Positions 26,281-64,000 of a DNA stretch of 64,000 nucleotides are shown piece by piece. Under the pieces are notes generated by a model. That model was not told the origin of the DNA and did not search any database. It was given only the letters and a program-made list of their open reading frames with translations. Numbering within the stretch: the first letter of the stretch is position 1; every line of letters begins with the position of its first letter. The translations under genes were made by a program, and so were the position numbers. The stretch lies in NCBI RefSeq assembly GCF_910592395.1, contig NC_088312.1, forward strand, positions 3,472,001 through 3,536,000, in the 5' to 3' direction. The stretch comes from Lineus longissimus. Its lineage: Eukaryota; Nemertea; Pilidiophora; Heteronemertea; Lineidae.

Positions 26281-31064
<4,784 letters not shown>

Positions 31065-31219
31065 CTTGAGTACGTTCGATTCGGTAAGCACCGGATCTCG
31101 GGCCTTAAAGCGCATGCCCAGTATGAGTCGAGCCCAAACGCTCTGGCGCCTTCGAAAGCCCAGAAGGCTCTTACTCGCGCAAGCGCGGCGCTAGTAATCG
31201 AACACGCTACTGAAACTAA
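31065..31219. promoter_or_regulatory. CpG-rich 5' flank of ATE1, likely half of a former bidirectional promoter
   Basis: This 155-bp segment between the ATE1 start codon and the transposon target site is rich in CpG and contains GCGCATGC, an NRF1-like half site. There is no TATA box. Together with 38601-38640 it would form a compact shared promoter. That role is inferred. Confidence 0.5.
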
Positions 31220-31228
31220 CAATTCCAC
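31220..31228. repeat. Left target-site duplication, CAATTCCAC
   Basis: This exact 9-bp direct repeat matches 38592-38600 and lies immediately outside the terminal inverted repeat, as expected for a transposon insertion. Confidence 0.9.
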
Positions 31229-32929
31229 GGGTAGGTGTAAACTGTGGACGAAAGTGTGGACGAAAGTGTAGACGAAAGTGTGGACAGCGGCCCTCTAAGT
31301 TTGGTGGGCTGGCATTTCTTTGTCTTTAAATATATTTAAAAGAAATTGCAGTATGTTAATGCATTATAACCTTTTTAATGGGTCAGCGAAAGAAAAAAAG
31401 AAAAAATTAATTTTGATGGGTGATTTTGATCAATGAGTGGACGGGCTTTTTAGCCCCTTTTTTGAAGGTTTTCGAAGTAGCCTTTGATTTTGTGGACGGG
31501 GAAATGCAAGGTCTAGTGTCCAAATGTGGACTAATATCAAAGAATTTGTTGAAACTGTGATATTTCTAACAAGTCCAAATAATATTCTTTCACAAAAACT
31601 ACTTTTATTTGAATGACAATGACAATATCATTCAGTTGTAGGCAAAAATAGTTTGCCCTCTCTCAGACCAACTTTTGTTGATCCAAGATGGCGGCACCAC
31701 TAGAATCGAATGTACGTAATAAAGGCACTGGAAAAAAAGGCACTGGAAAAAAAGGTACGGAAAAAAGGCACTAGGTAAAAAAGGCAATGGAAAAAATGGC
31801 ACCCAAAAAAATGTATGGGAAATCTCTGAGAAATCTCTACTACATAGATAAAAAATAAAAATAAAAATTTCTCTGTGCATTTCTATGTGTAGTTTTTCTA
31901 CATCAACAGAATACTGGGTGGTCCAAAAAAACGGAACAGCCTATTTTCAATACCTCCGACCAGAAAAACTAGCTTGGATAGGCAGGGAATCCTTATAAAA
32001 AATAATACAAAGATCATCCGATTTGGTCCACTAGTTTAATCAAGTTAGATTCAGGGTTCCCTCACCAATAACCTATTTCTACAAGATACAATAGTTTCAC
32101 AAGAGTGGCTATTGACATCTAGCAAAACATTCTTGATGAGTCTCATTGCAGTTTTATTGGTGAGAAAGACTTGGAAGGACATTACACATAGCACATTACA
32201 CATATAGAAATGCACGAGGGGGGGCACCCCAATGAATTTTTAACCTAGGGATTTCCTGGTGCCTTTTTTTCCAGTGCCTTTTTTACCTAGTGCCTTTTTT
32301 ACCCAGTGCCTTTTTTCCTAGTGCCTTTTTTACCTAGTGCCTTTTTTTCCAGTGCCTTTTTTTCCTAGTGCCTTTTTTCCGTACCTTTTTTTCCAGTGCC
32401 TTTTTTTCTAGTGCCTTTATTACCGTCTACCCCAGAATCGACTCGAATCTTAATTCAAATCTGCCATTGCCGACATCATTGGCGCCAAAAACTATTTCTT
32501 TTGACCCTGTTGACCTCGCTTCTAAAAATTTTGTTTTTAAACCATTCAAACATTTAAATCAACTGCAAACATTTTCAATAAAATCACCGAGCTATATATA
32601 TACGATATATTAAGAAATATATATAGTAATATTGTGTTATACGGTTACCTTGGAACTATTTGCACCCAATGACTCTTCCGCCAGCGTGACCTAGCCACAA
32701 TCATGGCGCGTACCCTAAGGCCTGTCTTCAGATTGCCAAATATCTCACGTCAAACATGAAAGCCCTGATAGCTCAGCGGTTAGAGCGCTGCGCTTTAGAT
32801 TGGGTGGTCACGGGTTCGAACCCCGGCGAATGTGTTTTTCGTTTTTTTAAAAGGTCTTCTTTCCATTTTTCATCCATGAACGTTTATCAGGCCCGGATTC
32901 GAATTAGATTCAAACCCTGGCAAATCTAC
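31229..32929 (+). repeat. Left terminal inverted repeat arm
   Basis: Reverse complement of 36949-38591. From the tip inward it contains the 12-bp subrepeats, an A-rich minisatellite at 31722-31810, about 400 bp of unique sequence, a T-rich minisatellite at 32262-32420 and a tRNA-like unit at 32762-32832. It is about 60 bp longer than the right arm because of minisatellite copy number. Confidence 0.85.
32762..32832 (+). repeat. tRNA-like segment, copy 1 (left arm)
   Basis: It has a D-arm GCTC-GAGC, a perfect A box (TAGCTCAGCGG) and a perfect B box (GGTTCGAACCC), followed within 15 nt by T runs that could end Pol III transcription. The 3' side cannot pair with the acceptor GCCCTGA and the anticodon stem is broken. 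This is therefore a tRNA-derived unit like a SINE head, not a working tRNA. Confidence 0.75.
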
Positions 32930-33464
32930 TTTCATCAATGATTTGAATTAAGATTCGAGTCGATTCTTTTGGAAGCCGAAAGTGCGGATGCACAGGGCAA
33001 TTGCATTTAGAAAGCTTCGCCGACTGATAGTCAAACCATTCCCTGGAGTGCTCGAAAACCTGGAATCAGTGTGTACTTCAGCTTGAAAAGTTCGCGGGTG
33101 AAGGGGTTTTCTTCATGATAATATTGATAATGATAATAATGATGATGGTCTAAGAGCGCTAGCGGATCCAGGAACTGGAAGAAAAGGGAGCGTGCACTGC
33201 ATTTCTCATCAAAATTGCTGCACTACAGGTGTGTTCCAAACTTTCATGGTCAATTTCAAAGATTCTATATCAATTAGGGGCCGTGCCTCTGGTGCACCCC
33301 CTTGGATACGCGCCAGATAAACGTTCATGGATGAAAGTAGAAAGAAAGCTTTTTAAAAAAAACGATATAAGATTCGCCAGGGCTTGAATCTAATTCGAAT
33401 CCGGGCCTGATAAACGTTCATGGATGAAAATGGAAAGAAGACCTTTTAAAAAAACGAAAAAATA

Positions 33465-33535
33465 CATTCGCCGGGGTTCGAACCCGTGACCACCCAATCT
33501 AAAGCGCAGCGCTCTAACCGCTGAGCTATCAGGGC
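33465..33535 (-). repeat. tRNA-like segment, copy 2
   Basis: Same 71-nt tRNA-derived unit on the minus strand, with A and B boxes intact and a T run (A run on +) just downstream. Confidence 0.7.
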
Positions 33536-34358
33536 GTTCATGTTTGACATGAGATATTCGGCAATCTGAAGACAGGCCTTAGGGTACGCGCCATGATTGT
33601 GGCTAGGTCACGCTGGCGGAAGAGTAATTGGGTGCAAATAGTTCCAAGGTAACCGTATAACACAATATTACTATAGATATTTCTTAATATATCGTATATA
33701 TATAGCTCGGTGATTTTATTGAAAATGTTTGCAGTTGATTTAAATGTTTGAATGGTTTAAAAACAATTTTTTTAGAAGCGAGGTCAACAGGGTCAAAAGA
33801 AATAGTTTTTGGCGCCAATGATGTCGGCAATGGCAGATTTGAATTAAGATTCGAGTCGATTCTTTTGGAAGCTGAAGTGCGGATGCACAGGGCAATTGCA
33901 TTTAGAAAGCTTCGCCGACTGATAGTCAAACCAATCCCTGGAGTGCTCGAAAACCTGGAATCAGTGTGTACTTCAGCTTGAAAAGTTCGCGGGTGAAGGG
34001 GTTTTCTTCATGATAATATTGATAATGATAATAATGATGATGGTCTAAGAGCGCTAGCGGATCCAGGAACTGGAAGAAAAGGGAGCGTGCACTGCATTTC
34101 TCATCAAAATTGCTGCACTACAGGTGTGTTCCAAACTTTCATGGTCAATTTCAAAGATTCTATGTCAATTAGGGGGCGTGCCTCTGGTGCACCCCCTTGA
34201 ATACGCGCCTGATAAACGTTCATGGATGAAAGTAGAAAGAAAGCTTTTAAAAAAATCGATATAAGATTCGCCAGGGTTTGAATCTAATTCGAATCCGGGC
34301 CTGATAGACGTTCATGGATGAAAATGGAAAGAAGACCTTTTAAAAAAACGAAAAAATA

Positions 34359-34429
34359 CATTCACCGGGGTTCGAACCCGTGACCACCCAATCTAAAGCG
34401 CAGCGCTCTAACCGCTGAGCTATCAGGGC
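34359..34429 (-). repeat. tRNA-like segment, copy 3
   Basis: Minus-strand copy with both internal Pol III boxes intact. One substitution lies just 3' of the B box (GGTGAATG instead of GGCGAATG). Confidence 0.7.
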
Positions 34430-35253
34430 GTTCAAGTTTGAAGTGAGATATTCGGCAATCTGAAGACAGACCTTAGGGTACGCGCCATGATTGTGGCTAG
34501 GTCACGCTGGCGGAAGAGTAATTGGGTGCAAATAGTTCCAAGGTAACCGTATAACACAATATTACTATAGATATTTTTTAATATATCGTATATATATAGC
34601 TCGGTGATTTTATTGAAAATGTTTGCAGTTGATTTAAATGTTTGAATGGTTTAAAAAGAAAATTTTTAGAAGCGAGGTCAACAGGGTCAAAAGAAATAGT
34701 TTTTGGCGCCAATGATGTCGGCAATGGCAGATTTGAATTAAGATTCGAGTCGATACTTTTGCAAGCCGAAAGTGCGGATGCACAGGGCAATTGCATTTAG
34801 AAAGCTTCGCCGACTGATAGTCAAACCATTCCCTGGAGTGCTCGAAAACCTGGAATCAGTGTGTACTTCAGCTTGAAAAGTTCGAGGGTGAAGGGGTTTT
34901 CTTCATGATAATATGATAATGATAATAATGATGATGGTCTAAGAGCGCTAGTGGATCCAGGAACTGGAAGAAAAGGGAGCGTGCACTGCATTTCTCATCA
35001 AAATTGCTGCACTACAGGTGTGTTCCAAACTTTCATGGTCAATTTCAAAGATTCTATGTCAATTAGGGGGCGTGCCTCTGGTGCACCCCCTTGGATACGC
35101 GCCTGATAAACGTTCATGGATGAAAGTAGAAAGAAAGCTTTTTAAAAAAACGATATAAGATTCGCCAGGGTTTGAATCTAATTCGAATCCGGGCCTGATA
35201 AACTTTCATGGATGAAAAATGGAAAGAAGACCTTTTAAAAAAACGAAAAAATA

Positions 35254-35324
35254 CATTCGCCGGGGTTCGAACCCGTGACCACCCAATCTAGAGCGCAGCG
35301 CTCTAACCGCTGAGCTATCAGGGC
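35254..35324 (-). repeat. tRNA-like segment, copy 4
   Basis: Minus-strand copy. A substitution in the anticodon-loop region (CTCTAGA instead of CTTTAGA) is its only notable change. Confidence 0.7.
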
Positions 35325-36148
35325 GTTCATGTTTGACGTGAGATATTCGGCAATCTGAAGACAGGCCTTAGGGTACGCGCCATGATTGTGGCTAGGTCAC
35401 GCTGGCGGAAGAGTAATTGGGTGCAAATAGTTCCAAGGTAACCGTATAACACAATATTACTATAGATATTTCTTAATATATCGTATATATATAGCTCGGT
35501 GATTTTATTGAAAATGTTTGCAGTTGATTTAAATGTTTGAATGGTTTAAAAACAATTTTTTTAGAAGCGAGGTCAACAGGGTCAAAAGAAATAGTTTTTG
35601 GCGCCAATGATGTCGGCAATGGCAGATTTGAATTAAGATTCGAGTCGATTCTTTTGGAAGCCGAAAGTGCGGATGCACAGGGCAATTGCATTCAGAAAGC
35701 TTCGCCGACTGATAGTCAAACCATTCCCTGGAGTGCTCGAAAACCTGGAATCAGTGTGTACTTCAGCTTGAAAAGTTCGAGGGTGAAGGGGTTTTCTTCA
35801 TGATAATATTGATAATGATAATAATGATGATGGTCTAAGAGTGCTAGCGGATCCAGGAACTGGAAGAAAAGGGAGCGTGCACTGCATTTCTCATCAAAAT
35901 TGCTGCACTACAGGTGTGTTCCAAACTTTCATGGTCAATTTCAAAGATTCTATGTCAATTAGGGGGCGTGCCTCTAGTGCACCCCCTTGGATACGCGCCT
36001 GATAAACGTTCATGGATGAAAGTAGAAAGAAAGCTTTGAAAAAAAAACATATAAGATTCGCCAGGGTTTGAATCTAATTCGAATCCGGGCCTGATAAACG
36101 TTCATGGATGAAAATGGAAAGAAGACCTTTTAAAAAAACGAAAAAATA

Positions 36149-36219
36149 CATTCACCGGGGTTCGAACCCGTGACCACCCAATCTAAAGCGCAGCGCTCTA
36201 ACCGCTGAGCTATCAGGGC
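36149..36219 (-). repeat. tRNA-like segment, copy 5
   Basis: Minus-strand copy carrying the same GGTGAATG variant as copy 3, suggesting the array grew by duplicating pairs of units. Confidence 0.7.
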
Positions 36220-36948
36220 GTTCAAGTTTGAAGTGAGATATTCGGCAATCTGAAGACAGACCTTAGGGTACGCGCCATGATTGTGGCTAGGTCACGCTGG
36301 CGGAAGAGTAATTGGGTGCAAATAGTTCCAAGGTAACCGTATAACACAATATTACTATAGATATTTCTTAATATATCGTATATATATAGCTCGGTGATTT
36401 TATTGAAAATGTTTGCAGTTGATTTAAATGTTTGAATGGTTTAAAAAGAAAATTTTTAGAAGCGAGGTCAACAGGGTCAAAAGAAATAGTTTTTGGCGCC
36501 AATGATGTCGGCAATGGCAGATTTGAATTAAGATTCGAGTCGATTCTTTTGGAAGCCGAAAGTGCGGATGCACAGGGCAATTGCATTTAGAAAGCTTCGC
36601 CGACTGATAGTCAAACCATTCCCTGGAGTGCTCGAAAACCTGGAATCAGTGTGTACTTCAGCTTGAAAAGTTCGCGGGTGAAGGGGTTTTCTTCATGATA
36701 ATATTGATAATGATAATAATGATGATGGTCTAAGAGTGCTAGCGGATCCAGGAACTGGAAGAAAAGGGAGCGTGCACTGCATTTCTCATCAAAATTGCTG
36801 CACTACAGGTGTGTTCCAAACTTTCATGGTCAATTTCGAAGATTCTATGTCAATTAGGGGGCGTGCCTCTGGTGCACCCCCTTGGATACGCGCCTGATAA
36901 ACGTTCATGGATGTAAGTAGAAAGAAAGCTTTTAAAAAAAACGATATA

Positions 36949-38591
36949 AGATTCGCCAGGGTTTGATTCTAATTCGAATTCGGGCCTGATAAACGTTCAT
37001 GGATGAAAAATGGAAAGAAGACCTTTTAAAAAAACGAAAAAAATACATTCGCCGGGGTTCGAACCCGTGACCAACCAACCTAAAGCGCAGCGCTCTAACC
37101 GCTGGGCTATCAGGGCTTTCATGTTTGACGTGAGATATTCGGCAATATGAAGACAGGCCTTAGGGTTCGCGCCATGATTGTGGCTAGTCACGCTGGCGGA
37201 AGAGTAATTGGGTGCAAATAGTTCCAAGGTAACCGTATAACACAATATTACTATAGATATTTCTTAATATATCGTATATATATAGCTCGGTGATTTTATT
37301 GAAAATGTTTGCAGTTGATTTAAATGTTTGAATGGTTTAAAAACAAAAATTTTAGAAGCGAGGTCAACAGGGTCAAAAGAAATAGTTTTTGGCGCCAATG
37401 ATGTCGGCAATGGCAGATTTGAATTAAGATTCGAGTCGATTCTTGGGTAGACGGTAATAAAGGCACTAGAAAAAAGGCACTTGAAAAAAAGGTACGGAAA
37501 AAAGGCACTAGGAAAAAAAGGCAAAAAAAGGCACTAGGTAAAAAAGGCACTAGGAAAAAAACGCACTGGGTAAAAAAGGCACCAGGTAAAAAGGCACTGG
37601 AAAAAAGGCACCAGGAAATCCCTATGTTGAAAATTCATTTGGGGTGCCCCCCACCCGTGCATTTCTATATGTGTAATGTGCTATGTGTAATGTGCTTCCA
37701 AGTCTTTCTCACCAATAAAACTGCAATGAGACTCATCAAGAATGTTTTGCTAGATGTCAATAGGCACTCTTGTGAAACTATTGTATCTTGTAGAAATAGG
37801 TTATTGGTGAGGGAACCCTGAATCTAACTTGATTAAACTACTGGACCAAATCGGATGATCTTTGTATTATTTTTTATAAGGATTCCCTGCCTATCCAAGC
37901 TAGTTTTTCTGGTCGGAGGCTACTGAAAATAGGCTGTTCCGTTTTTTTGGACCACCCAGTATTCTGTTGATGTAGAAAAAACTACACATAGAAATGCACA
38001 GAGACATTTTTATTTTTATTTTTTATCTATGTAGTAGAGATTTCTCAGAGATTTCCCATACATTTTTTTGGGTGCCATTTTTTCCATTGCCTTTTTTTCC
38101 AGTGCCTTTATTACGTACATTCGATTCTAGTGGTGCCGCCATCTTGGATCAACGAAAGTTGGTCTGAGAGAGGGCAAACTATTTTTGCCTACAACTGAAT
38201 GATATTGTCATTGTCATTCAAATAAAAGTAGTTTTTTGTGAAAGATATTATTTGGACTTGTTAAAAATATCACAGTTTCAACAAATTCTTTGATAATTAG
38301 TCAACATTTGGACACTAGACCTCGCATTTCCCCGTCCACAAAATCAAAGGCAACTTCGAAAACCTTCAAAAAAGGGGCTAAAAAGCCCGTCCACTCATTG
38401 ATCAAAATCACCCAGCAAAATAATTTTTTTTCTTTTTTTCTTTCGCTGACCCAATGAAAAGATTATAATGCATTAACATACTGCAATTTCTTTTAAATAT
38501 ATTGGAAGACAAAGAAATACCAGCCCACCAAACTTAGAGGGCCGCTGTCCACACTTTCGTCCACACTTTCGTCCACAGTTTACACCTACCC
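36949..38591 (-). repeat. Right terminal inverted repeat arm
   Basis: Reverse complement of the left arm. Its inner 500 bp is also the last partial unit of the tandem array, so arm and array overlap. The tip carries two 12-bp subrepeats and ends 49 nt before the DNAJC8 start codon. Confidence 0.85.
37046..37116 (-). repeat. tRNA-like segment, copy 6 (right arm)
   Basis: Minus-strand copy inside the right arm, the inverted partner of copy 1. Changes include TAGCCCAGCGG in the A box and GGTTGGTTGGTC in the former anticodon-variable region. Confidence 0.7.
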
Positions 38592-38600
38592 CAATTCCAC
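38592..38600. repeat. Right target-site duplication, CAATTCCAC
   Basis: Exact partner of 31220-31228. Only 40 nt separate it from the DNAJC8 start codon, so the DNAJC8 5' UTR and promoter now include or abut transposon DNA. Confidence 0.9.
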
Positions 38601-38640
38601 CCTCGTTCCTTCGAATGCCGAAAGGGGCACTTGTTTCAAA

Positions 38641-41215
38641 ATGGCTGACACTGGCTCCACAAGTAAAAGTTGTGAAGGAAAAGTTGATCCTGATACAAAA
38701 GAAACGGGAAAATCTGAAGACGCATTTAACACATTCTACTCAGAGGTATTTCATCTAACTGCCCTCCAAATTTTGTGGTTATCTGATTTCAATTTGTCGA
38801 ATTATTTGAACATTTCTGAAAAAATTTAACCATGTTTGTTTTCAGTTTTGCATGCTCCTTCCTATCTCTAGTATCTTCAGCAGTCACTTTCTCATGTTCT
38901 TCACTGACTCCAGCTTCATATCACCTTAATCATTCGTCTTGTAGGCTACACAACATACACAGCATGCATGTATGCAATATTTCTTCAGGTTTTCCTTTAG
39001 TGATCATTGGGCACAGGCCTGGCCCTGGACCAGGGGCAGGTCCAGAGACCAACGGAGGGCGAGAGGCAGAGTGGCACAGGCAACCTGCTGAGCTGGCGTT
39101 TGAGTTCGACCATCAATGGCATTAATCATGCTGTCGGCCATGGTTGGATGGCGATAAGTTCTTGGAATTAGATTTATTCCTTATTCTAAATTTCAGGTGA
39201 AACAAATTGAGCAACAAGATTCTGTCCTGACGTCCAAGCAACAAATTGATAGACTTACCAGACCTGGGGCCACATATTTCAATCTTAATCCATTTGAGGT
39301 AAGAAATGAAGACGTGGCACTTTGCATACAGCCTTCAGAGAGAACATTTCCTCATGACGAGAGTCTGCATCTATTGCAAAAATCACGTAAGGCCATCCTT
39401 AAAGAACAGCTGCTTTTCATTCCTGCCACCCGCCCCCCCCCCCGCACATCAAAACCCACGTTGTAAACTTGTTTGTAGTTATTCCAATGATATTCAATTT
39501 GTGGTGATGGAATTTGTTGATAATCATGTTTTGTATTGTATTTCAGGTTCTTCACTTAGATCCAGACATCGGGCCAAACGATGCCAAAAAGAGATACAGG
39601 CAGCTTTCAATCCTGGTCCATCCTGACAAAAACCAAGATGATCAGGAAAGAGCGCAGAAAGCCTTTGAAGGTGAGAAATCTTCTTTACTACTGATTATCA
39701 TGATCCTGAAACATTTGAAAATTTTTGACCTAGGAACATATACAACTGATTTTTTTAGTTTGCCAAGAAATACCATGTCCAGATAACCCCTTTAACCAGT
39801 TTTTCTTTGTTGCAGCTGTGAACAAGGCCTACAAAACATTGGAGAATGAAGAAGGATTGAAAAGATGTAAAGAAATCATTGATGAGGCTGTGGTCAGGGT
39901 TGAGGAAAATGTAAGTGAAGGATGACGTCTCTGTTTCATCAACTAAAAAGACTAAACACTTTTAGTTAAAAAAAATCTGGAATAAACTTTAAAAAAAACA
40001 ACAACTCATGTTAAACTGCATTTTCTCAACCGATAGAAATACAGTAAGCTCGCCCTCCTAACTCTAAAGCTGTTAAGAATGCAGCAGTGTTGAAATGGAT
40101 ATGAGGAAGTAAGAAGGCAAGTCAATACTCTTGACCTTGTTGTGAGTTTTATCTTTTGTTTTTCTTCAGACTAAGTTAAAACGAAAGCAGCTAAAGAAAG
40201 AGGGAAAGCCTCAAGAAGTGCCTGAAGATGACCCTGCAAAGGTGAGTGAATGCCTCATTTGTTCAACTCATAAAACTAAAAGAACTGGCAAAACACACCA
40301 GAAGATGGCCATAAGCTTCCTCAAGCTAATCCAATCCTGGGCGGGTTCCTCAATTTAGTGTGGTATCAGCACTGGACCTAGATAATTCTCTGAAGTTGTC
40401 CTTATTTTCTTTTGTTGCATTATGTACTGGGCTTGTCATTTTCCTCATAATTTGTCACAAAATAGCATCTTGTCAGCTACAGCATCAACATCTTATTTTC
40501 ATATTTTCAGTACAAACATGCTGTTTATGTGCAGACAGCCAAGCTATTTGCTGATTTAGAAAGAATGAGACAGGAGCGAGAGGCAAAGGACATGCACGAG
40601 AGGTAGGCCTGAAAAACATCTATAAGGGGCAACATTAACATAATTATGCAGATTTGGGGTGAAAAGTAGAGTTCTGTTCAGAGAGCCTACCCCTAGACCA
40701 AAAACCTTAATAGAGTCTCGTTTTCTGTTTAAGGAAACGTAAAGCTGAAGATGAGGCTGAAGCTGAGGAAAAAAAGAAAAAGGATGCCGAGTGGCAGAAA
40801 AATTATGAGGTAAGATTTCCCATCCCATGTGTTGAGACACAGTTGAGATTTTGATGCCCCATTGCTATGGTATTAGTTGGTTGTGGCATTGTCTCAATAT
40901 GACCTGAGGCAGAGTTGAAGATATTCATGCCCCCCTGTCCTTTGCTATCATATTGGTTGTGACAATGTCTCAGTATGACCTAAGGCACAGTTGAGGGTAT
41001 TCATGGCCCCTTGCTGAGGTACTTTGCCTTGTTGATACTCGGGTGTTTTGCCTTACATAGGTCTGTGTCCTCCATTCACACTGCTATTTCACTTTCAGGC
41101 GAGCCGAGACGGTCGTGTGGACAGCTGGAGAAATTGGGCAAAGAAGAGAAAGGGGAGCACGAAGGTCATGAAAGGAGGATTCAAACCACCAAAAATTCAA
41201 GCAGAAAAGAGATAA
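38641..41215 (+). CDS. DNAJC8: DnaJ homologue subfamily C member 8, 8 exons, 260 aa, complete
   Basis: A nuclear J-domain protein associated with spliceosomes, expected to stimulate Hsp70 ATPase. Exons are 38641-38745, 39197-39298, 39547-39670, 39816-39910, 40170-40241, 40511-40602, 40734-40809 and 41099-41215. All are GT-AG and in phase (261 codons with stop). The N-terminal block has FNTFYSE, DSVLTSK and RLTRPGATYFNLNPFEVL. The J domain (about 65-130) holds the HPD triad at H94-D96 within LSILVHPDKNQDD. The rest is a highly charged Lys/Glu coiled-coil region ending with SRDGRVDSWRNW. Length matches the 253-residue human protein. The gene is divergent from ATE1, and its start codon lies 49 nt from the transposon end, so its promoter may be rebuilt from transposon sequence. 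Confidence 0.97.
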
Positions 41216-46246: not shown

Positions 46247-47175
46247 TTTTTCTTTTTCAGCTTGAACGATGTGACAAGTGTCGCCTATATATTCGACGTT
46301 CCTCCTTTTCCTGCGGCCCTGCCCCAAGGACTATTTCCTGGCTACCACTGACCGTCGCTCTATTTTTTGGACGGATAAAAAAACTACAGAAAAGCTGTCC
46401 CGGTAGATAGATGTCACATTCGCCGCCCAAGTCCGGAAGGTTAACCCACATAGGGCCTACTAAAGGGTCACTCAATGTTCCTTCTCCTGTGCTTTCACAA
46501 CGAACGCCATTCCAGTCACGATCACTCTACGTCTTTTTGTCGACGCCGTAAAACGAAACGTCGCCCAACAAGTACGCGTGACGTCACATACGGTTCTCGT
46601 TGTCGCACAGAATCATGCACAGAATAGTGTCCGATCTATTTTGTGTTGATAGGTCTTATTCCCAAATGGGCGTGATAAGAAACAGACATTTGAGTCACCA
46701 TAGGCCTACACCCGTTTATTCGGGAAAATATCTGCGCCTACATTATTCATCTAATTCGTGGTACCGTGACAGATGATTAAAAAGAAGGGTACCTAAATGG
46801 AAAAGGAGGATGCATACGATTGGCTGTTAGTGAATCGTAGAATATCCACGATAGGCCAATATAAAGGCCAGATGCGAGACTACGTTCGTTGTGCAGGACC
46901 AGGCCAGTCCACGTTGTCTCTGCGTCCGGAGTGTAATGAGGGGAGGCCACGGACGGAGTACCTCTGATAGTTTAGAATGCAACAGCTGTCGGCGAAGTAC
47001 ACCTGCAGTTAGATATCGGCTAATGCAGAGCCAATTCCTTTGAAGAGAACTCCCCGGCCTCTGATGGAGGTTTGGCATTGCGTGAAAATCTATCTGATGA
47101 TGGGACACTCGTTTTGTAGCCGTGTTTCATTGTAGGAAGAATACCTCGAAATTGCTCTAGTCAGGTTCATTGGCA
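46247..47175. other. Intergenic region between the SLC16-like gene and zinc-ribbon paralogue 1
   Basis: The two genes are divergent. CCAATATAAAGG at 46856-46867 is a possible CCAAT/TATA pair for paralogue 1, about 310 nt before its first ATG. Nothing else is recognised. Confidence 0.5.
46860..46866 (+). promoter_or_regulatory. Possible TATA box of zinc-ribbon paralogue 1
   Basis: TATAAAG preceded directly by GGCCAA. The distance to the first ATG (47176) implies a 5' UTR of nearly 300 nt, perhaps with an intron ending at CTCTAGTCAG (47164). Confidence 0.35.
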
Positions 47176-47817
47176 ATGGGCCGCGCCAATTACTGTACAT
47201 TCATTACCAATTGCGAGACAACAAAAGCCATGGCCGCCAAGATCCCAGACGATGTGGAGGAACTTGCGAAGGCAAAGGGCATCGAACTGGTCGAAAGTAC
47301 TTCTTCGGTTTCTAAGGGGAAGTGTATGGACTGTAAAGGCCCGCTCCTTGAAGGAACCGGTACCTGGTATGAGGAGCAGATTATATACTTCGAGGAGCCA
47401 ATGGTTAAATATTGGATCGTTTGGAGCAAGCAACTGAGGCCCGCTGCCTACAGCTGGCCGATGGGCGAGCGGAAATACCGTTGTCACAAGTGTTTTAACG
47501 ACTTCAACGACGCCCGGACAAAAATGACTGCGACTCGTGAACAGGCTACGAAAGCTGCCTCAAAGAGGGGTATCAAGCTCTTCAGCGATGGCCCGTATTT
47601 CCCGGGCAGGGAGAGACGTCGATGCAAAAAGTGTTCTGTCCCACTGACAAACAAGGGTTGGTACTCAAGTGGAGACACATCGAAAAACAACAAGCCGGTG
47701 TACGTCTGCTGGGATGTCAGGGATGGCACTTTGGTTCCTCTTGCATACAAAGTCGCGGGAGAAATCGAGGCGTACGTGTGCCATGACTGTTACAAGAAAA
47801 ATGGTAAGATAGTTTGA
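47176..47817 (+). CDS. Tandem double zinc-ribbon-like protein, paralogue 1 (213 aa)
   Basis: Single uninterrupted frame in an intron-rich neighbourhood. Two homologous modules are visible. Module 1 runs from CMDC (C50/C53) through GTWYEEQIIYFEEPM and LRPAAYSWP to CHKC (C103/C106). Module 2 runs from CKKC (C150/C153) through KGWY and LVPLAYKV to CHDC (C202/C205). Two CxxC pairs per module, about 50 residues apart, suggest one structural zinc each. A linker holds CFNDFNDARTKMTA and GPYFPGR. No signal peptide or membrane segment is seen, so it is probably nuclear or cytosolic. I do not recognise the family. An inner ATG at 47230 (GCCATGG) matches the start of paralogue 3 better and would give 195 residues. 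Confidence 0.85.
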   Translation: MGRANYCTFITNCETTKAMAAKIPDDVEELAKAKGIELVESTSSVSKGKCMDCKGPLLEGTGTWYEEQIIYFEEPMVKYWIVWSKQLRPAAYSWPMGERKYRCHKCFNDFNDARTKMTATREQATKAASKRGIKLFSDGPYFPGRERRRCKKCSVPLTNKGWYSSGDTSKNNKPVYVCWDVRDGTLVPLAYKVAGEIEAYVCHDCYKKNGKIV

Positions 47818-48583
47818 GAACTTTGGCACGCCAAAAATGATAGACAAGGTCGAACAAGGATATTCTCAGTTGGTTTCTGTTTTACGTCGTGTATTATACG
47901 TGTATCATTCTCTTCCTTTCGACTAAATTCATGCCCGGTAACTGGCCGCATCGTCAGTTGATAAACATGTACAGTGATTTAACATGTATTTCTCTCACAT
48001 ACAGAACAAGCATGATGTGATGCGAAGCTTTTTTATTGCATACAAACGATGGTTGTGGTACAATTGCCGAGGAAATAACATCAAATCGGTGACACCATTT
48101 TCTCCTTAAATGACCGCTGGATCAGCCGTCTCTTTCGTACATTGTTATTTCCGATTGCGTTAAATGTGGAATGATAATGATCATCCGTTAATTAGATACT
48201 TATAATTTACTGATGTCATCAACGTAATAGGCACTTGTTTGACTCATCAAGTCTAAATATCAGCGGAATTAACAATATTATGTGTAGTGATTGTTTGCAG
48301 GCGAGACAATGGACACGCTGGGCCCTACGCCAATTTCGTAGGAGGAATGACACCATGCCATTGTCGAGAGGATATAATTAGATCGAAACGCATATTTAGA
48401 GACGCAGTAAGCGATATTGACTTGGTAACAAAATATTTCATCTCTATAAATAGTTCTATATCCGCAACTCTCTCAGCTGATTTCATTTTCCATTATATTT
48501 TCGCCACATACGCAGTTGGATAGCTTGAAGTCGCAATCCTGGAGGTCGTCAGGGACTTATCCGAACCACCATTATACTCCCAA
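47818..48583. other. Spacer between zinc-ribbon paralogues 1 and 2
   Basis: AT-rich sequence with no coding signal. It should contain the paralogue 1 3' UTR and the paralogue 2 promoter, whose TATA box is listed separately. Confidence 0.5.
48442..48451 (+). promoter_or_regulatory. Likely TATA box of zinc-ribbon paralogue 2
   Basis: CTATAAATAG is a strong TATA consensus 133 nt before the paralogue 2 start codon. It implies a transcription start near 48475 and a 5' UTR of about 110 nt. TATA promoters are common for inducible genes, but regulation cannot be read further. Confidence 0.55.
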
Positions 48584-49327
48584 ATGTTTGGTTCTAAGAG
48601 TTTCATCAGAGAAATGTCCATGTCTGGGTCTTCCTCAAAGTTGGAAAAGTTAGAAGATGCGGCCCTGACGGATGATTTATACGCAGTACAGCAGATTATC
48701 AAGAAAAAGAAAAAGAAGATTCGTATTCGGAAGGCGTACGAGCCATGCGGGCGGATTCGCTGCGGCGACTGCGGCGGATGTCTTCCCGAAGGGACTTGGT
48801 ACGTCGAGGAGATGCTGTACTACGATGAACCGATGATCAAGTACTGGTTCCCCTGGGACGGTGACCTGCGCCCTGCAGCCTACAGCTGGCCTTTCGAAGA
48901 TAAGGAGTACCTCTGCACGAAGTGCTTTAACGACCGTGACGACTCTCGAACCAAGATGACGGCAAGTCGGCCGGAGGCGTTGCAAGCCGCGGCGAAGTGT
49001 GCCATCAAGTTGCACGAAGGCGGACCGTTCTTTCCCGGCAGGCAAAAGCGTCACTGTAAACGTTGCAGCGTCATTCTCACAAACCGTGGATGGTATCTGA
49101 GCGATGATACCACGAAGAACAATGTTCCTGTGAATGTCTGTTGGGACCTTCAAAAGAGTGAGTTGATGCCAATAGCGTATAAAGTTCGCGGACCTGCTGA
49201 AACATATATCTGCTTCAGGTGCTTCAAGGAATGTGACGAGAAGATCGATGTGGCTTCTTTAGCTCAGAGTACAGACCAGGAGGGGCAGGACCGTCGAGGC
49301 TCTGCTCCATTTTATCTTGGGGAGTGA
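48584..49327 (+). CDS. Tandem double zinc-ribbon-like protein, paralogue 2 (247 aa)
   Basis: Intronless, with the same layout as its neighbours: CGDC (C60/C63), CTKC (C111/C114), CKRC (C158/C161) and CFRC (C210/C213), with GTWY in module 1 and RGWY in module 2. It shares PMIKYWFPW, LRPAAYSWP, CFNDRDDSRTKMTASR and PGRQKR with paralogue 1, its closest relative here. It differs by a longer N-terminus with a run of basic residues (IIKKKKKKIRIRK, about 38-50), which could be a nuclear localisation signal, and by an acidic and polar C-terminal extension. An inner ATG at 48614 is also possible. Function unknown; zinc binding and a role in protein or nucleic-acid contacts are inference. Confidence 0.87.
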   Translation: MFGSKSFIREMSMSGSSSKLEKLEDAALTDDLYAVQQIIKKKKKKIRIRKAYEPCGRIRCGDCGGCLPEGTWYVEEMLYYDEPMIKYWFPWDGDLRPAAYSWPFEDKEYLCTKCFNDRDDSRTKMTASRPEALQAAAKCAIKLHEGGPFFPGRQKRHCKRCSVILTNRGWYLSDDTTKNNVPVNVCWDLQKSELMPIAYKVRGPAETYICFRCFKECDEKIDVASLAQSTDQEGQDRRGSAPFYLGE

Positions 49328-49882
49328 CCTTCGACCAAACTGCATCATATCAAAACATTTATACGGACACGATCATAATCACTTTTCAGCCGAACAAAAT
49401 GTAAACCTTTCGGTTCATAATGACTGATTAGATAAGAGAGTCACGACAAGGATGTTCTGCGTGACACAGTGAGTCTGTCACAAGGGCGACGTCTAAAAAC
49501 GCTACGGGAAATTTCAGGGAAAAATATCGAGTAGGCGTCGTCTTAGATGTTAATCGGTTCTCCGCCCTTCAAATTTGATGACACCCTGCCTGAAGTTTGT
49601 CCTGTGTAAAAGTCAAAACATGTGAAAACATAGTGAAAACAGATTGACAATTCTCTGAACCGGGATTTGCACTGGTCTTAACAAATATTCAAGCCAATAG
49701 AACATTATATGACAGGACCTAGACATAAAATGAACAGCCTTTGATATGTTGAATCTTCTTTAAAGTATGGTTGACATAAACATTTGTGTCGGTATGAATT
49801 GCTTACAATTTCTTAGGTTCACTTTTATGGAAAACGACCTCAACCAAATACGTGGACACTAAGAGCTACTAGATTCAGCAGG
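49328..49882. other. Spacer between zinc-ribbon paralogues 2 and 3
   Basis: No gene, repeat or clear promoter element was recognised. No TATA box matching that of paralogue 2 is seen upstream of paralogue 3. Confidence 0.5.
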
Positions 49883-50509
49883 ATGGCATCAAAAAAGAGA
49901 CCAACAAAACCTCTGGACGAAGAGTTTTTAGCATTGCAACAATTGGCTGCGAGGAAGGGTATCAAAATCAATGCTTCGTTTGGCTCAACTGGTACCAACA
50001 AATGCGTGGACTGTGAAACTTGCCTACGAAGCGGAAAATGGTACTCCGAGGACATCGTGTACAACGAAGAACCAATGATCAAATTCTGGTTGAACATTGG
50101 GAGTGATTTCAAGATGGTTTCCTACTGTTGGCCGTCAGGAGATAGGAAGTATCTCTGCCCAAAGTGCTTCGATATCCGCGATGAAGCCCGCCTGAAACAT
50201 ACCGCGAGTCGCGAGGCTGCACTTCAAGCCGCGACATCATCAGGGATAAAGCTCGACCCAAATCCTGGACCTTACTTCCCCGGGCGGGGCAAGCGGCGCT
50301 GTCTGTATTGTCAAGATTCCCTGTCCACCCAGGGATGGTACTTCAGTAGTGTGAAGAGTAAGAATGGCATTGCTATGTCCGCCTGCTACGATGTCGGCCA
50401 GACGATGGGCTCCCTGATCCCCATTGCATACAAGGTCAAGGCCGCGGTGGAGGATACGTATGTCTGCCGGAACTGCTATATGGCTTGCGATGGGGATATA
50501 GAGTTGTGA
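49883..50509 (+). CDS. Tandem double zinc-ribbon-like protein, paralogue 3 (208 aa)
   Basis: Third intronless copy and the most divergent. CxxC pairs are CVDC (C41/C44), CPKC (C92/C95), CLYC (C140/C143) and CRNC (C195/C198). The module landmarks GKWYSEDIVYNEEPM, KYLCPKCF, GPYFPGRGKRRC, QGWYFSS and LIPIAYKV are kept, while LRPAAYSWP has drifted to FKMVSYCWP. The N-terminus (MASKKRP) is basic. Same strand and regular spacing (766 and 555 bp gaps) point to tandem duplication. Family unknown. Confidence 0.87.
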   Translation: MASKKRPTKPLDEEFLALQQLAARKGIKINASFGSTGTNKCVDCETCLRSGKWYSEDIVYNEEPMIKFWLNIGSDFKMVSYCWPSGDRKYLCPKCFDIRDEARLKHTASREAALQAATSSGIKLDPNPGPYFPGRGKRRCLYCQDSLSTQGWYFSSVKSKNGIAMSACYDVGQTMGSLIPIAYKVKAAVEDTYVCRNCYMACDGDIEL

Positions 50510-53500: not shown

Positions 53501-54850
53501 CAACACTGGCCCTCGAGTCAATATGCTTGATATCACGACGTTCATCCCGTGTAATGTAATAACTAGGAAGTTCGAGATTCGAAATTCAAAGGATCGGGTT
53601 AATAATAGGTTTCCTTTGAATAAAATTACATGACGAATAATTTACAGATGCCATGCCGATATAACAGGTCCGGGTGATTACCCGCCAAAAGCAAAAGGGG
53701 AATTCCCCTTCTTGAAGGTGTAGCTTATCATTATCTACGGCCTCAGAAAGACGAAAGCAGTTGCAAAGTGAAAGTTCTTTTGACCCCGTATACAATAACA
53801 TCAATGAAAATAGAACTGTCTAAAAACAATGGGGACTGCGAATTTGATATTTTACATTGACTGATATATGGATATTTACAGTAATATTTGCCATATTCGA
53901 TAAAAAATCTAAGGTCTACGTAACAACCATTGTCAAGGAAGGAACACTTGCAAAATCTTCAGTAACAAAATGCGGCGGAAAAAGCTAATTGAACATTTTT
54001 TGTCTATGATGGCCATTCGTATGCATTATGTCGGAAGGTAAAAAAAAACTAGTTCTCATATACATGTACTACATGATTGCAGGCTTACTTCTAAAAATGC
54101 GTAGAATCAAATGCAATTCATAAAATAAGTTTAGGTCATCATTTCCTTTCGTGTATTAGTTTCTGATTCGACGTTGTATTACTGATATGTACTAATTTCA
54201 ATTCGCCCTTAGTGCTGGGCTGGTATAGTCTAGGTTATTCCGATGATAACCCATTAATTGAAAATGTCAAGAGAGCCTCTCTTATCAGGGTGTGCCAGCA
54301 TTGGAATTTAATTCAACCATGCAGGAAGATATATTGTGTACACTATGTATTCGTGACTTTTAAGATGTCATCACTGCAAAGTTGTTGAAGCGTGAATCAT
54401 GGATATTATAGTTTTATGGAAACACCAGTTGATCTTTGGATTCTTCTTAGAATCATTAAAAACAATCCTTCATGTACATGTATGTATCATAATTGTATTG
54501 ATCGATTACATTTTTAAAAAATGGTATCTCATTATAAAGTGACGGTTTTCAACGGCGTTTCGGGCCGGCCAATCTGGTAAAATGAAAGCGAATAATTGTC
54601 ATTATATATATGAATGAACAAGGAAGTTTCAATGTAAGTGGTTAGGTATACAATGTATATACGCATATCTATATTACACTATACTACCCCAGAGTCTTTC
54701 AAATAAGTTATAGTCGACGTCTACGTTTTTGACAGCATTTATGAAAAAAAGAAGAAATAAGGTCATTTTCTCTTCGTCAGCAATTCCTTCAGAAGTGTAG
54801 TCGTCGGTTCGGTCGTGAGTTTTATCCCTGATACAAAATGTTCTTTATAG
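50510..54850. other. Intergenic region upstream of the FN3 gene
   Basis: No coding gene was recognised in 4.3 kb. It contains a degenerate MITE-like copy at 50839-51009. The first exon of the FN3 gene, with its start codon and most of its signal peptide, may lie here or further left but could not be identified. Confidence 0.55.
50839..51009. repeat. MITE-like element, copy 2 (degenerate)
   Basis: Starts CCGGTGTAACGT and ends TGTTAAAACGG. It shares internal blocks with the element at 42600-42783 in the same order (ATGGGGACAACCACAGGTGT against ATGGGGAACAACCACAG). The right end has lost its inverted-repeat match. Confidence 0.5.
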
Positions 54851-57800
54851 ATCGCGTTTGTCATCGTTCTCCTTGCAATTGCGATGACTACAACCACAGT
54901 ACTGTCAGCTACAACTGTGTCAACAGCACCAGCAACAACAACAACAGCGGAGACTGTTAGCACAACCCACCCAAGTTCTCCAGTGACAACAGCAACATCG
55001 GTGACGACGACAGCATCCGCCACCACCTCTACGCCTGCTGCTACGGGTAAGGGAAATATGATACCATAAAATTTCGTATCACTCATATCATTAAAACATG
55101 GTAAAACAAAAGAGTGATAAAATTACGAACTCGTTGTGACATCACAATGCTTTTGATGATATCCAAGCAGCATTCCTTTCATAATTTGATTGCGAAATTA
55201 AAACGTCATAAGTGGTTTAAGAAGTTGTCCAGTTACATTCAAACCAGGAAAATGCAACACCAGCTTGTACCTGCATCGATTGTAAATGAGGAGGAAGAGG
55301 ATAAATAATATCACGAAATGTTTGGTTTGTCGTTTTTCGGGTCTTGGGATCTGATATAGTTTTATCATGCATTTTCTTACAGACTTTATCTACGTATTTT
55401 TCAGTACTTCTGGCAGTTGCGGGACTAGCAGTGTCTAATACGAGCACAGCGGGACTTACTCTGACATGGATTAAACCAGTTGGTGATGGTCATGTCTACA
55501 CTGTCTCATATAAGCGGGAGGACGGTCCAACAAATAGTAACAGCACAGAGGCAGAGACTTTTGAGTTCTCCGGTCTACTGCCAGGTTATAACTACACTTT
55601 CAATGTCACATATGAGGTCAAAAATGCAACTGAGGAGAGCCCAGCAGCATGGATAGCATTTGTATTAGGTAAGTCGATTCAGCTCATTTTGATAAACGAC
55701 ACAATTTTATCTTACTCAGTTTTGGTATATAAAACGTCAATTACTTCCCAACCTGCACCTTTAGGATCTTAGCACAAATAATTTGTTACGGGAATCATTG
55801 GAAAATTCAAAGGTACTTTCGAAGTGATCATGTTAGTGGTCTCTTACCAGCCAGAGACGTGGTGCTTGTGTTGATGTGATGCTCAATGTCGAGAGAAGTG
55901 TATTTTGAAAACGGAATGATGCTCACAAATGTTATAGGGTCGCAGAAAGATATTATCTATACCCAAGCAAATGATGACCAGTCAGTCACTGATTAATCGT
56001 TTTCATCGATAAAACGAACCAATTATACATTTTAGCTCCGGAGGAACCGAAAAACATTACGGTCTTGCAATATACGACTGCACTGACTTTGACCTGGGAG
56101 AAACCTGCTGGTAAGGTGGACAAATATGTATTCAGCCTAAATGGCACAATCAAGGGGAATACTACCACAGAGAAGTTAGAAGTCACCGGACTATTGGCTG
56201 GGACCATCTACATGATTGGCATCAGCTCTGTTAGCAATGGAAAGGAAAGTCAAGAGGAAGTCCTGCATGCTGCTACGAGTAAGTTTAGTGACCATTGATT
56301 GTGCTCTTACATACAGCCATTGTAAGCCAAAGCTTAGACATAGCTAACGACTCATTATTACTTTTAAGTTCCTAACACCGCTAAAAACTTGGCTGTTCAC
56401 AGTAGTTGTTATATTAGCGAAGTGTGACGTTCTCATGTCCTCCCATCTGTATTTATTATCTATTTTACGACTGTTTTCTTTATCCGCCAAAGGACCAGAG
56501 CAGCTCGTAAAAATGTTAAAGGCAGAGGAATCAACTTCATCAAGCGTCTTGCTGACGGTCATTTTATATAGGCTTAACCCGGACTATATGATATCCATCC
56601 ACTATAAAATCGAATATGGTACTGAACATACTTATAGTATCCAGCGTTTCCCCATGCCGGCCAGCGGAGATGCTAATGTCAATGTCACTAACCTCTCCCC
56701 TGGGACAAAATATTCGTTCACTGGATATACGGAATTACATGCAGTCGAGTCGGAACTTTCAACTGGTAGTTCAGCTTTCGATAGTTTTTATACCCGTGAG
56801 TATATCTTCCACTTAGTATGTCTTCTTCATCTCAGCGTTCGGTGACAGCATCAACTTCTTAGGTCGGTGGATGTCACAAATCAGGTTTCACCATTGCTGT
56901 TATTGTGAAAGGTTGTTCTTGATCCAGTGGAACATTTTGCTGGTGATGCTCCTTTTCAGGAGTTTGTAGAAGAGGCCCACATTCCATACCCTGTCAAATG
57001 CCTCGGCGAGATAAGAAAACACAACTAAAGTATTTTCCTTTTTCTGAAATCCACCCTCCGCCACCTGGGCGAGAAGTAAGCGCTGGTCCTCCGTTCTTCG
57101 GTGTTTGCGATTAGCAGACAGTGTTGAGCTGAAAGGGTGGTTAGACACCGGATGCCAGTAGAGTAGTCGCTTGTTGACAATCCTTTCCTGCACTGGCAAC
57201 TTTCCATGCATCTGGGAGGAAATTTATTGGGTGGTAACTGTCTTGACTGGCATTTTCCTTTCCTTTTTGTGGATAAGAATGATGTTTGTTACTTTCCACG
57301 CCCTTGCCACAGTTCCTTTTCTGCAGCTTACATTGAAAATAAATGGGGAGAAGCTTGGCTGTTGGACGGAGGTGTTTTAGCATATTATTGCTGACTATAT
57401 CAGGACCCGTTGTATCATTCTAGTATATGGGATCTTTTAAAACATACTGTTGCTTTCGACAACGTTGCTCATAGAACTAAGGCTTGTAAATAACGAGCCG
57501 AGCTGTGGAGCCATGCCTTGATCTCTGTCTACTGAGGACTCGTACAAAGTGTTCGTTCGATCAGAAGATGACACCTTTTGGCTGTATAAAGAATTGATCA
57601 GACTTCTGCTGAATTCATATTCCTGACGCCTCTGCAACGTTTGCGCTTCTGATCTTAAATGCTGAAATGCCTTTGGTCTGGAAGGGACAAATCAATAGCA
57701 GATTCGTCGTTGTCGGGCAGCTTCAGGAGTTGGAAATTCAGGCCATCCTTCTCACTTGAATATCTTGTGTGACAGAAAAGCTAAGACAAAAAGATCTCTT

Positions 57801-63800: not shown

Positions 63801-63967
63801 TGTTGATGCACAACCCAAACGATCCAAAGAAACTACTGATAATTCAACCAGCCTTGTCATAGATGGTTTGCAGAGTCACAAATTGTATGCCTTTTCCGTT
63901 TGCGCTAATACGAGCAAAGGCCAAGGTCCTTGCAGTGATGAAGAGGAATGGCGAACGGATCAAGACA
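54851..63967 (+). CDS. Fibronectin type III repeat cell-surface protein, receptor tyrosine phosphatase-like ectodomain (partial, both ends open)
   Basis: Extracellular part of a large surface or secreted protein. Exon 54851-55046 encodes a hydrophobic stretch (IAFVIVLLAIA), probably the end of a signal peptide, then a Thr/Ser-rich mucin-like stretch. FN3 exons are 55405-55668, 56036-56278, 56493-56795, 58703-58960, 59258-59542, 59752-60024, 60217-60480, 60633-60902, 61038-61334, 61648-61853 plus 62165-62360, 62606-62887, 63077-63364 and 63677-63967. That is thirteen domains and about 1305 residues in the window. Every domain boundary is a phase-1 intron; only domain 10 is split (phase 0). Domains keep the Trp of strand B and the LTPG or LxPG-Y turn, and have many N-glycosylation sequons. 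The domain style (VSGKKESQS, LEPAGLKW) resembles PTPRB, PTPRJ and PTPRQ. No phosphatase domain is reached, so that identity is inference. Confidence 0.88.
56900..57383 (-). pseudogene. Degenerate non-LTR retrotransposon reverse transcriptase fragment
   Basis: Lies in the intron between FN3 exons for domains 3 and 4, antisense to the gene. Minus-strand frames show a weak PKKGK-like block with SYHPINFLP (around 57260-57330), then TEDQRLLLAQVAEGGFQKK and AEAFDRVWNVGLFYKLLK. These match the finger and palm start of LINE reverse transcriptases. Frames are shifted, the usual catalytic Asp before AFDRV is replaced and the rest of the domain is missing. Inactive; exact clade not assigned. It may extend left to about 57640. 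Confidence 0.65.
58073..58266. repeat. Nested foldback (MITE-like) element
   Basis: Outer arms of about 55 bp (58073-58127 and 58209-58266) begin TTGGCAAG and share a TTGTCCTG-TGGAGAGCCG block. The interior (58128-58183) is itself a smaller foldback with CTTGCCAAACAG at both ends. It lies in the FN3 intron near the reverse transcriptase fragment. Confidence 0.65.
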
Positions 63968-64000
63968 GTACGTAATTTAGAAAATGTTTGTAATGTTCTA

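What the first reader, a model, noticed from the sequence alone, without database searches (positions are those of the whole stretch)
31220..38600. Foldback transposon splits the ATE1-DNAJC8 bidirectional promoter
ATE1 (-) and DNAJC8 (+) are divergent. Removing the 7363-bp element and one 9-bp duplication leaves about 0.2 kb between their start codons, typical of a shared promoter of two housekeeping genes. The element end is only 49 nt from the DNAJC8 ATG. Both genes look intact, so each must now start from half of the old promoter or from transposon DNA.
Basis: partly seen in the sequence, partly recalled or inferred. Interest (0 to 1): 0.8.

Follow-up and report, generated by a model that had tools for sequence, protein, structure and literature searches.

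The report
Foldback transposon inside a two-gene promoter
In a ribbon worm, a 7.4-kb mobile DNA element with folded-back ends has landed in the roughly 200-base gap between two housekeeping genes that start back to back, most likely inside their common start region; element and landing place are of a known kind, but the site is a good natural test of what such a split does.

Summary
A 7363-bp element (31229-38591) with inverted arms of about 1.7 kb and a perfect 9-bp duplication (CAATTCCAC) sits between ATE1 (-, ATG 31064) and DNAJC8 (+, ATG 38641). Without it the start codons are 204 bp apart, in one of the three most CpG-dense places of the window's host DNA. The species is Lineus longissimus (Nemertea); both proteins equal its database records. 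The split is lopsided: ATE1 keeps 164 bp with both NRF1-like motifs, DNAJC8 keeps 49 nt including the duplication, so DNAJC8 is the gene at risk. The element shows no transposase; 9-bp duplication, tandem-repeat ends and foldback arms fit a non-autonomous Mutator-like (MULE) foldback element. Its core is five tandem ~895-bp units plus one inverted partial unit, each with tRNA-like Pol III A and B boxes. MULEs are known to land near start sites; in one maize set 4 of 4 promoter insertions had no effect, but 5 of 20 leader insertions were strong. The two genes share a contig in 8 of 13 spiralians compared and 0 of 6 other animals; adjacency was shown only in Lineus. No expression data, other copies or empty alleles could be reached, so a shared promoter is inferred, not shown.

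The parts
31229..38591 (.). Foldback transposon, 7363 bp, no transposase gene recognised
   Evidence: TIR termini and 9-bp TSD; longest ATG/GTG/TTG frame in it 88 aa, longest stop-to-stop frame 132 aa; the four element translations given to Pfam had no hit
31220..31228 (.). Target-site duplication, left copy CAATTCCAC
38592..38600 (.). Target-site duplication, right copy CAATTCCAC
31229..32927 (+). Left inverted arm (outer ~485 bp with 12-bp tandem repeats; middle segment with 15-bp repeats; inverted partial core unit); inner domain borders set by eye
36949..38591 (-). Right inverted arm, 97.25% identical to the left arm read inverted
31239..31285 (+). 12-bp tandem repeats (AAAGTGTGGACG) at the left end; mirror array 38547-38581
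31714..32426 (+). Middle segment bounded by inverted AAAGGCACTGGAAAA-type 15-bp repeats; mirror copy about 37446-38107
32940..37415 (-). Five tandem core units of 894-896 bp (starts 32940, 33836, 34730, 35625, 36520); units 1 and 3, and 2 and 4, are the closest pairs
32763..32845 (+). tRNA-like sequence with Pol III A box, B box and T run (right-pointing copy); the five left-pointing copies have their A box starting at 33528, 34422, 35317, 36212, 37109
   Evidence: below the Rfam gathering score
31684..31695 (+). Exact YY1-like motif CAAGATGGCGGC in the left arm, pointing into the element; mirror at 38135-38146 (-)
31065..31228 (-). ATE1-side remnant of the intergenic interval (164 bp incl. 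one TSD copy): NRF1-like sites 31110-31117 and 31176-31187; CpG o/e 1.39
38601..38640 (+). DNAJC8-side remnant (40 bp), 3 CpG, out-of-frame upstream ATG at 38615
26281..31064 (-). ATE1 coding exons, with tandem alternative exons 27643-27807 and 27408-27569
38641..41215 (+). DNAJC8 coding exons (8)

Best explanation
A non-autonomous Mutator-like (MULE) foldback element was inserted by a transposase supplied in trans into the open common start region of ATE1 and DNAJC8, with a staggered 9-bp cut (inferred from structure). Shown: the element, its 9-bp duplication, the 204-bp CpG-dense head-to-head interval, two intact genes, and that the NRF1-like motifs stay on the ATE1 side. Inferred: (a) the interval was a shared promoter; (b) ATE1 still starts from its own 164-bp remnant and is little changed; (c) DNAJC8 starts in the 40-49 nt left to it, helped by whatever activating sequence the outer right arm provides, and is the gene whose level or start site most likely changed.
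For: TSD and TIR; arms 97.25% identical; 204 bp between ATGs with 20 CpG, o/e 1.37 against 0.64 for the window without the element; 13 of 2822 host windows reach 20 CpG, 4 of them at this site; NRF1-like 12-mer with 1 mismatch matched as well in 4 of 478 host windows, and the GCATGCGC half site in 2 of 478, windows over the site itself included; proteins equal to Lineus records on contigs of the same length, 23,943,388 bp. Literature: MULE duplications of 8-11 bp and long TIRs (PMC6446971 passages); 9-bp duplications and tandem-repeat foldback TIRs with a Phantom-type MULE transposase in Tm1 (PMC3169594); maize Mu and Pack-MULEs peak just upstream of start sites, and 4 of 4 tested promoter insertions left expression unchanged (PMC7337890 passages).
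Against: No transposase, second copy or empty allele was found, the genome search never having answered, so MULE membership rests on anatomy; foldback anatomy also arises elsewhere (Galileo, P type). Shared-promoter function rests on distance, CpG and motif matches; the YY1-like match at the ATE1 ATG is weak evidence (as good in 20 of 478 windows). In the same maize set 5 of 20 insertions in 5' leaders were knockouts or strong knockdowns, so if the DNAJC8 leader was hit the effect need not be mild. Locus tags of the two genes lie far apart in three bivalves (Sinanodonta 468, Solemya 1352, Pinctada 9026 numbers), so the pair may be young or confined to some lineages.
Confidence: 0.72

Rival explanations
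1. Transposon promoter takeover: DNAJC8 is now transcribed from the outer right arm, so its mRNA leader is transposon sequence and its regulation follows the element.
For: Only 49 nt remain upstream of the DNAJC8 ATG; an AT-rich TATA-like stretch lies about 90 bp inside both ends (38492-38503; left arm about 31325-31340, not scored as a promoter); the last 120 or so bases of the right arm hold no ATG; TIRs of MULEs carry promoters of the transposase (PMC6446971 passage).
Against: The one strong motif of the arm, the exact YY1-like site, points inward. A leader starting in the arm would carry the out-of-frame ATG at 38615 with a 47-codon upstream frame. In maize 4 of 4 promoter insertions left expression unchanged.
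Confidence: 0.2
2. Two separate back-to-back core promoters, never functionally shared; the insertion is a neutral spacer.
For: The NRF1-like motifs are all on the ATE1 side; in three bivalves the genes are not neighbours by locus tag.
Against: At 204 bp between ATGs both start regions must overlap or nearly so; CpG density is high on both sides of the insertion point (17 in 164 bp and 3 in 40 bp).
Confidence: 0.2
3. Assembly or haplotype artefact.
For: Nothing specific found; tandem units are a place where assemblers can miscount.
Against: Exact TSD, coherent anatomy, contig of 23.9 Mb. The unit number could be wrong without touching the insertion itself.
Confidence: 0.03

Closest known systems
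Tm1, Mutator/Foldback family of root-knot nematodes (PMC3169594)
   Same: 9-bp duplications in most copies; terminal repeats built of short tandem units (mostly 14 bp there, 12 bp here); non-autonomous copies; arms of one copy usually not identical (mean 93.15% there, 97.25% here); a terminal 7-mer CCTACCC is reported at one Tm1 end and our right end reads CCTACCC
   Different: Our element is 7.4 kb with a tandem tRNA-like core and symmetric ends; the reading direction of the Tm1 7-mer could not be settled from the text, so that match, noticed after the fact, may be chance; no transposase known here
Tetris, foldback element of Drosophila virilis (PMC4079207)
   Same: TIRs up to 1735 bp with several domains and internal tandem repeats, 8-10 bp duplications, no conserved ORF, variable middle, repeats seeding satellite-like arrays
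   Different: 220-bp repeats lie in the arms there; here ~895-bp tRNA-like units run through the loop into one arm
Helenus, tRNA-containing TRIM retrotransposons, reported in L. longissimus (PMC10886601)
   Same: tRNA-like Pol III promoter sequence in a short non-coding repeat; tandem arrays reported for one family
   Different: Helenus has LTRs, primer-binding site and, in animals, 4-bp duplications; no such borders were identified for the unit here and its consensus could not be compared
Maize Mu and Pack-MULE insertions near start sites (PMC7337890)
   Same: insertion just upstream of a start site
   Different: plant elements; foldback arms are not discussed in the passages read

Membership tests
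Mutator-like elements (MULE) | 8-11 bp target-site duplication | tested here: met
   9 bp, perfect; range
Mutator-like elements (MULE) | DDE transposase of MULE type, in the element or in a partner with the same ends | tested here: inconclusive
   No long ORF in this copy; the partner could not be sought, the genome search having failed to answer ten times
Foldback-type element | Long, multi-domain, internally repetitive inverted arms | tested here: met
Tm1 / Phantom | Conserved terminal 7-mers and FLYWCH-MULE transposase | tested here: inconclusive
   CCTACCC at our right end, direction in Tm1 unclear; no transposase
Helenus TRIM (core unit) | LTRs, PBS, PPT, 4-bp TSD | not tested
   Unit borders unknown in a tandem array; looked at by eye only; published consensus not available here
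Functional tRNA gene (core unit) | tRNA model at or above the Rfam gathering score | tested here: not met
   25.7 bits at best against 29; ARAGORN none at default, 3 weak candidates in the element with its threshold lowered; fold z-scores -0.20 and -0.73 for the 2 of 6 copies folded
Bidirectional promoter | Divergent start sites within 1 kb | tested here: inconclusive
   ATG-ATG 204 bp once the element is removed, with ATGs standing in for start sites; today the ATGs are 7.6 kb apart
Bidirectional promoter | One stretch drives both genes | not testable with these tools
   needs reporter or nascent-RNA data

The most novel reading that the evidence does not exclude
The insertion has put six TFIIIC-type A/B-box modules (five pointing left, one right) between two genes that used to share one promoter, so the element may act as a Pol III-type insulator or second promoter that uncouples ATE1 from DNAJC8: a natural promoter-splitting experiment.
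Probability: 0.1. Interest if true: 0.65.

Novelty: new member of a known kind. Interest (0 to 1): 0.42.

Why it matters
Head-to-head housekeeping pairs are thought to be held together by a shared start region. A large, structurally coherent insertion in such an interval, with both genes still intact, is a ready natural test of how much of that region each gene needs, especially if an empty allele still segregates. For the mobile-element field it adds a nemertean foldback element whose core has grown by tandem, apparently two-unit, amplification of a tRNA-like repeat.

Tried and rejected
Rejected: origin of the arm's YY1-like stretch from the ATE1 promoter (best local score 22; shuffled promoters averaged 19 and reached 32 in 300 trials). 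Rejected: working tRNA genes in the core units. Not supported: coding capacity; one repeated 72-aa frame found no relative in the protein database. Led nowhere: exact scans of viral contigs for the terminus and for the tRNA-like core (0 hits each); no other copy of the element elsewhere in the window. Paper searches, one open-access library only, listings seen: this gene pair (1 paper, on ruminant resequencing), a transposon that separates a head-to-head bidirectional promoter (0 papers with all four terms), a looser form (2 Salmonella papers). A Drosophila and vertebrate survey of divergent pairs (PMC2670823, term search in its main text) does not name ATE1 or DNAJC8. Age: the arm divergence (K2P 0.028) is not used as a date, because arms of such elements need not be identical at insertion (in Tm1 5 of 61 elements have identical arms).
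Full report
What is there. The window carries ATE1 on the minus strand and DNAJC8 on the plus strand, start to start. Between them lies an element of exactly 7363 bp (31229-38591) that begins GGGTAGGTGTAAAC and ends with its reverse complement, flanked on both sides by CAATTCCAC. The numbers in the finding are right: 49 nt from the element to the DNAJC8 ATG, and 204 bp between the ATGs once the element and one 9-bp copy are removed.

Species and genes. The DNAJC8 protein read from the window (260 aa) equals a database protein of Lineus longissimus at 100% identity and coverage, on a contig of 23,943,388 bp. ATE1 of the same species, on a contig of the same length, is a 453-aa isoform X2 that is letter for letter my model with the second of two tandem alternative exons. 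Pfam finds ATE_N, ATE_C and DnaJ above their cut-offs. Both genes are intact as coding sequences. What transcript evidence stands behind the database records was not seen.

Anatomy of the element. The arms 31229-32927 and 36949-38591 are 97.25% identical over 1634 aligned bases with 15 gap events (K2P 0.028). From outside in: 12-bp tandem repeats within about 485 bp of outer arm; a middle segment bounded by inverted 15-bp repeats of the AAAGGCACTGGAAAA type; then the core unit. The left arm has one partial inverted core unit, and five units of 894-896 bp follow in tandem from 32940. Units 1 and 3 (K2P 0.0135) and units 2 and 4 (0.0147) are the closest pairs; the other eight pairs among the five lie at 0.020-0.026 and the partial inverted unit at 0.036-0.045 from all of them. 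This points to amplification as a two-unit block (inference). Each of the six copies has a Pol III A box, a B box 44 bases on and a T run at the same spacing. None reaches the Rfam tRNA threshold (best 25.7 bits against 29). ARAGORN at default finds no tRNA in the window; with its threshold lowered it lists three weak candidates in the element, two of them over these sequences. The two copies folded are no more stable than shuffles. The longest ATG/GTG/TTG frame is 88 aa, the longest stop-to-stop frame 132 aa, and the four element translations given to Pfam had no hit, so the copy looks non-autonomous.

The interval it hit. The joined 204 bp hold 20 CpG (o/e 1.37, GC 54%); the window without the element has o/e 0.64 and a mean of 5.5 CpG per 204 bp. 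Of 2822 such host windows 13 reach 20 CpG: 4 at this site, the other 9 in two places, near 43.8 kb and 48.7-48.9 kb of the window. On the ATE1 side stand an NRF1-like 12-mer with one mismatch (31176-31187; a match as good in 4 of 478 host windows), a GCATGCGC half site (31110-31117; 2 of 478) and a YY1-like motif across the ATG (as good in 20 of 478, so weak evidence); windows over the site itself are included in these counts. The names NRF1 and YY1 and their consensus are recalled, not from a call. The DNAJC8 side keeps 40 bp plus the duplication, with 3 CpG, a partial YY1-like match at its ATG and an out-of-frame ATG at 38615. So the cut is lopsided. ATE1 also has an in-frame upstream ATG at 31115.

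Was it a shared promoter? Distance and CpG say probably; function is untested. From the two protein listings (the best 120 of 997 hits for DNAJC8, and of 4511 for ATE1) I compared by eye the longest-contig lengths of the 19 species that I found in both with contig values. They agree in 8: Lineus, Tubulanus, Nucella, Littorina, Pinctada, Sinanodonta, Solemya, Pecten. They differ in 5 spiralians (Biomphalaria pfeifferi, Batillaria, Lingula, Haliotis rufescens, Elysia marginata), in each of which at least one of the two contigs is under 7 Mb, and in 6 other animals (Limulus, with short contigs, and Polypterus, Neoarius, Spea, Chanos, Microcaecilia). In Nucella the contig is 4,478,047 bp and the locus tags are 021649 and 021655; in Sinanodonta, Solemya and Pinctada the tags are 468, 1352 and 9026 apart. 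Tag numbers need not follow gene order. The fair reading: adjacent in Lineus, six tags apart in one gastropod, on one contig in several other spiralians including the nemertean Tubulanus, and not neighbours in three bivalves. An ancient head-to-head pair is not shown.

What the element is. Nine-base duplications, long repetitive arms and lack of a gene match the foldback elements Tm1 (PMC3169594: abstract, sections 5, 6, 9 and passages read) and Tetris (PMC4079207: abstract and sections 3, 10, 17), which their authors place in or near the Mutator superfamily. MULE duplications are 8-11 bp (PMC6446971 passages and section 8). Foldback anatomy is not proof of superfamily. Helenus, a tRNA-bearing retrotransposon group, is reported from this very species (PMC10886601: abstract, passages, section 13); whether the core unit derives from it could not be tested, because the published consensus sequences were out of reach.

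How it most likely acts. Maize Mu elements and Pack-MULEs concentrate just upstream of start sites; 4 of 4 promoter insertions tested there left expression unchanged, while 5 of 20 insertions in 5' leaders were knockouts or strong knockdowns (PMC7337890 passages). The mosquito MULE Muta1 makes 8- or 9-bp duplications without sequence preference (PMC5225508 passages). The expected outcome here is ATE1 unchanged and DNAJC8 shifted or somewhat reduced, possibly helped by the arm; if its old start lay upstream of the insertion point the effect could be larger. The exact YY1-like motif in the arms (31684-31695 and mirror; the window has 4 matches with up to one mismatch against 0.21 expected, two of them this one site twice) points inward and so does not obviously serve either gene.

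Limits. Ten requests to search the worm's own genome did not complete, so copy number, empty sites, partner transposase and insertion preference of this family remain untested, and no transcript data were available.

Noticed in passing
27408-27807: ATE1 carries two tandem, similar exons in one slot (27643-27807 and 27408-27569), like the alternative exons I recall for vertebrate ATE1; the Nucella model P0141 shows a similar doubled stretch by eye. Looks like an old mutually exclusive exon pair.
   Followed up: partly
30488-30623: Palindromic MITE-like repeat in ATE1 intron 1 (36-nt arms, 92% complementary).
   Followed up: no
28879-28953: Tight hairpin (32-nt arms, 94% complementary) in an ATE1 intron.
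   Followed up: no
32940-37415: Tandem units show a two-unit period of similarity (1 with 3, 2 with 4), a small higher-order repeat inside a transposon.
   Followed up: partly
31714-32426 and 37446-38107: The middle segment of each arm is itself bounded by inverted 15-bp repeats, as if an older element had been trapped in the arm; no duplication seen by eye at its borders.
   Followed up: partly
47161-50506: Long plus-strand open frames at 47161-47814, 48524-49324 and 49817-50506; the first and last encode related cysteine-rich proteins (46% identical), the middle one looks similar by eye. The first has no Pfam hit.
   Followed up: partly
54800-64000: Many open frames with fibronectin-III-like sequence by eye, perhaps one large cell-surface gene.
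   Followed up: no
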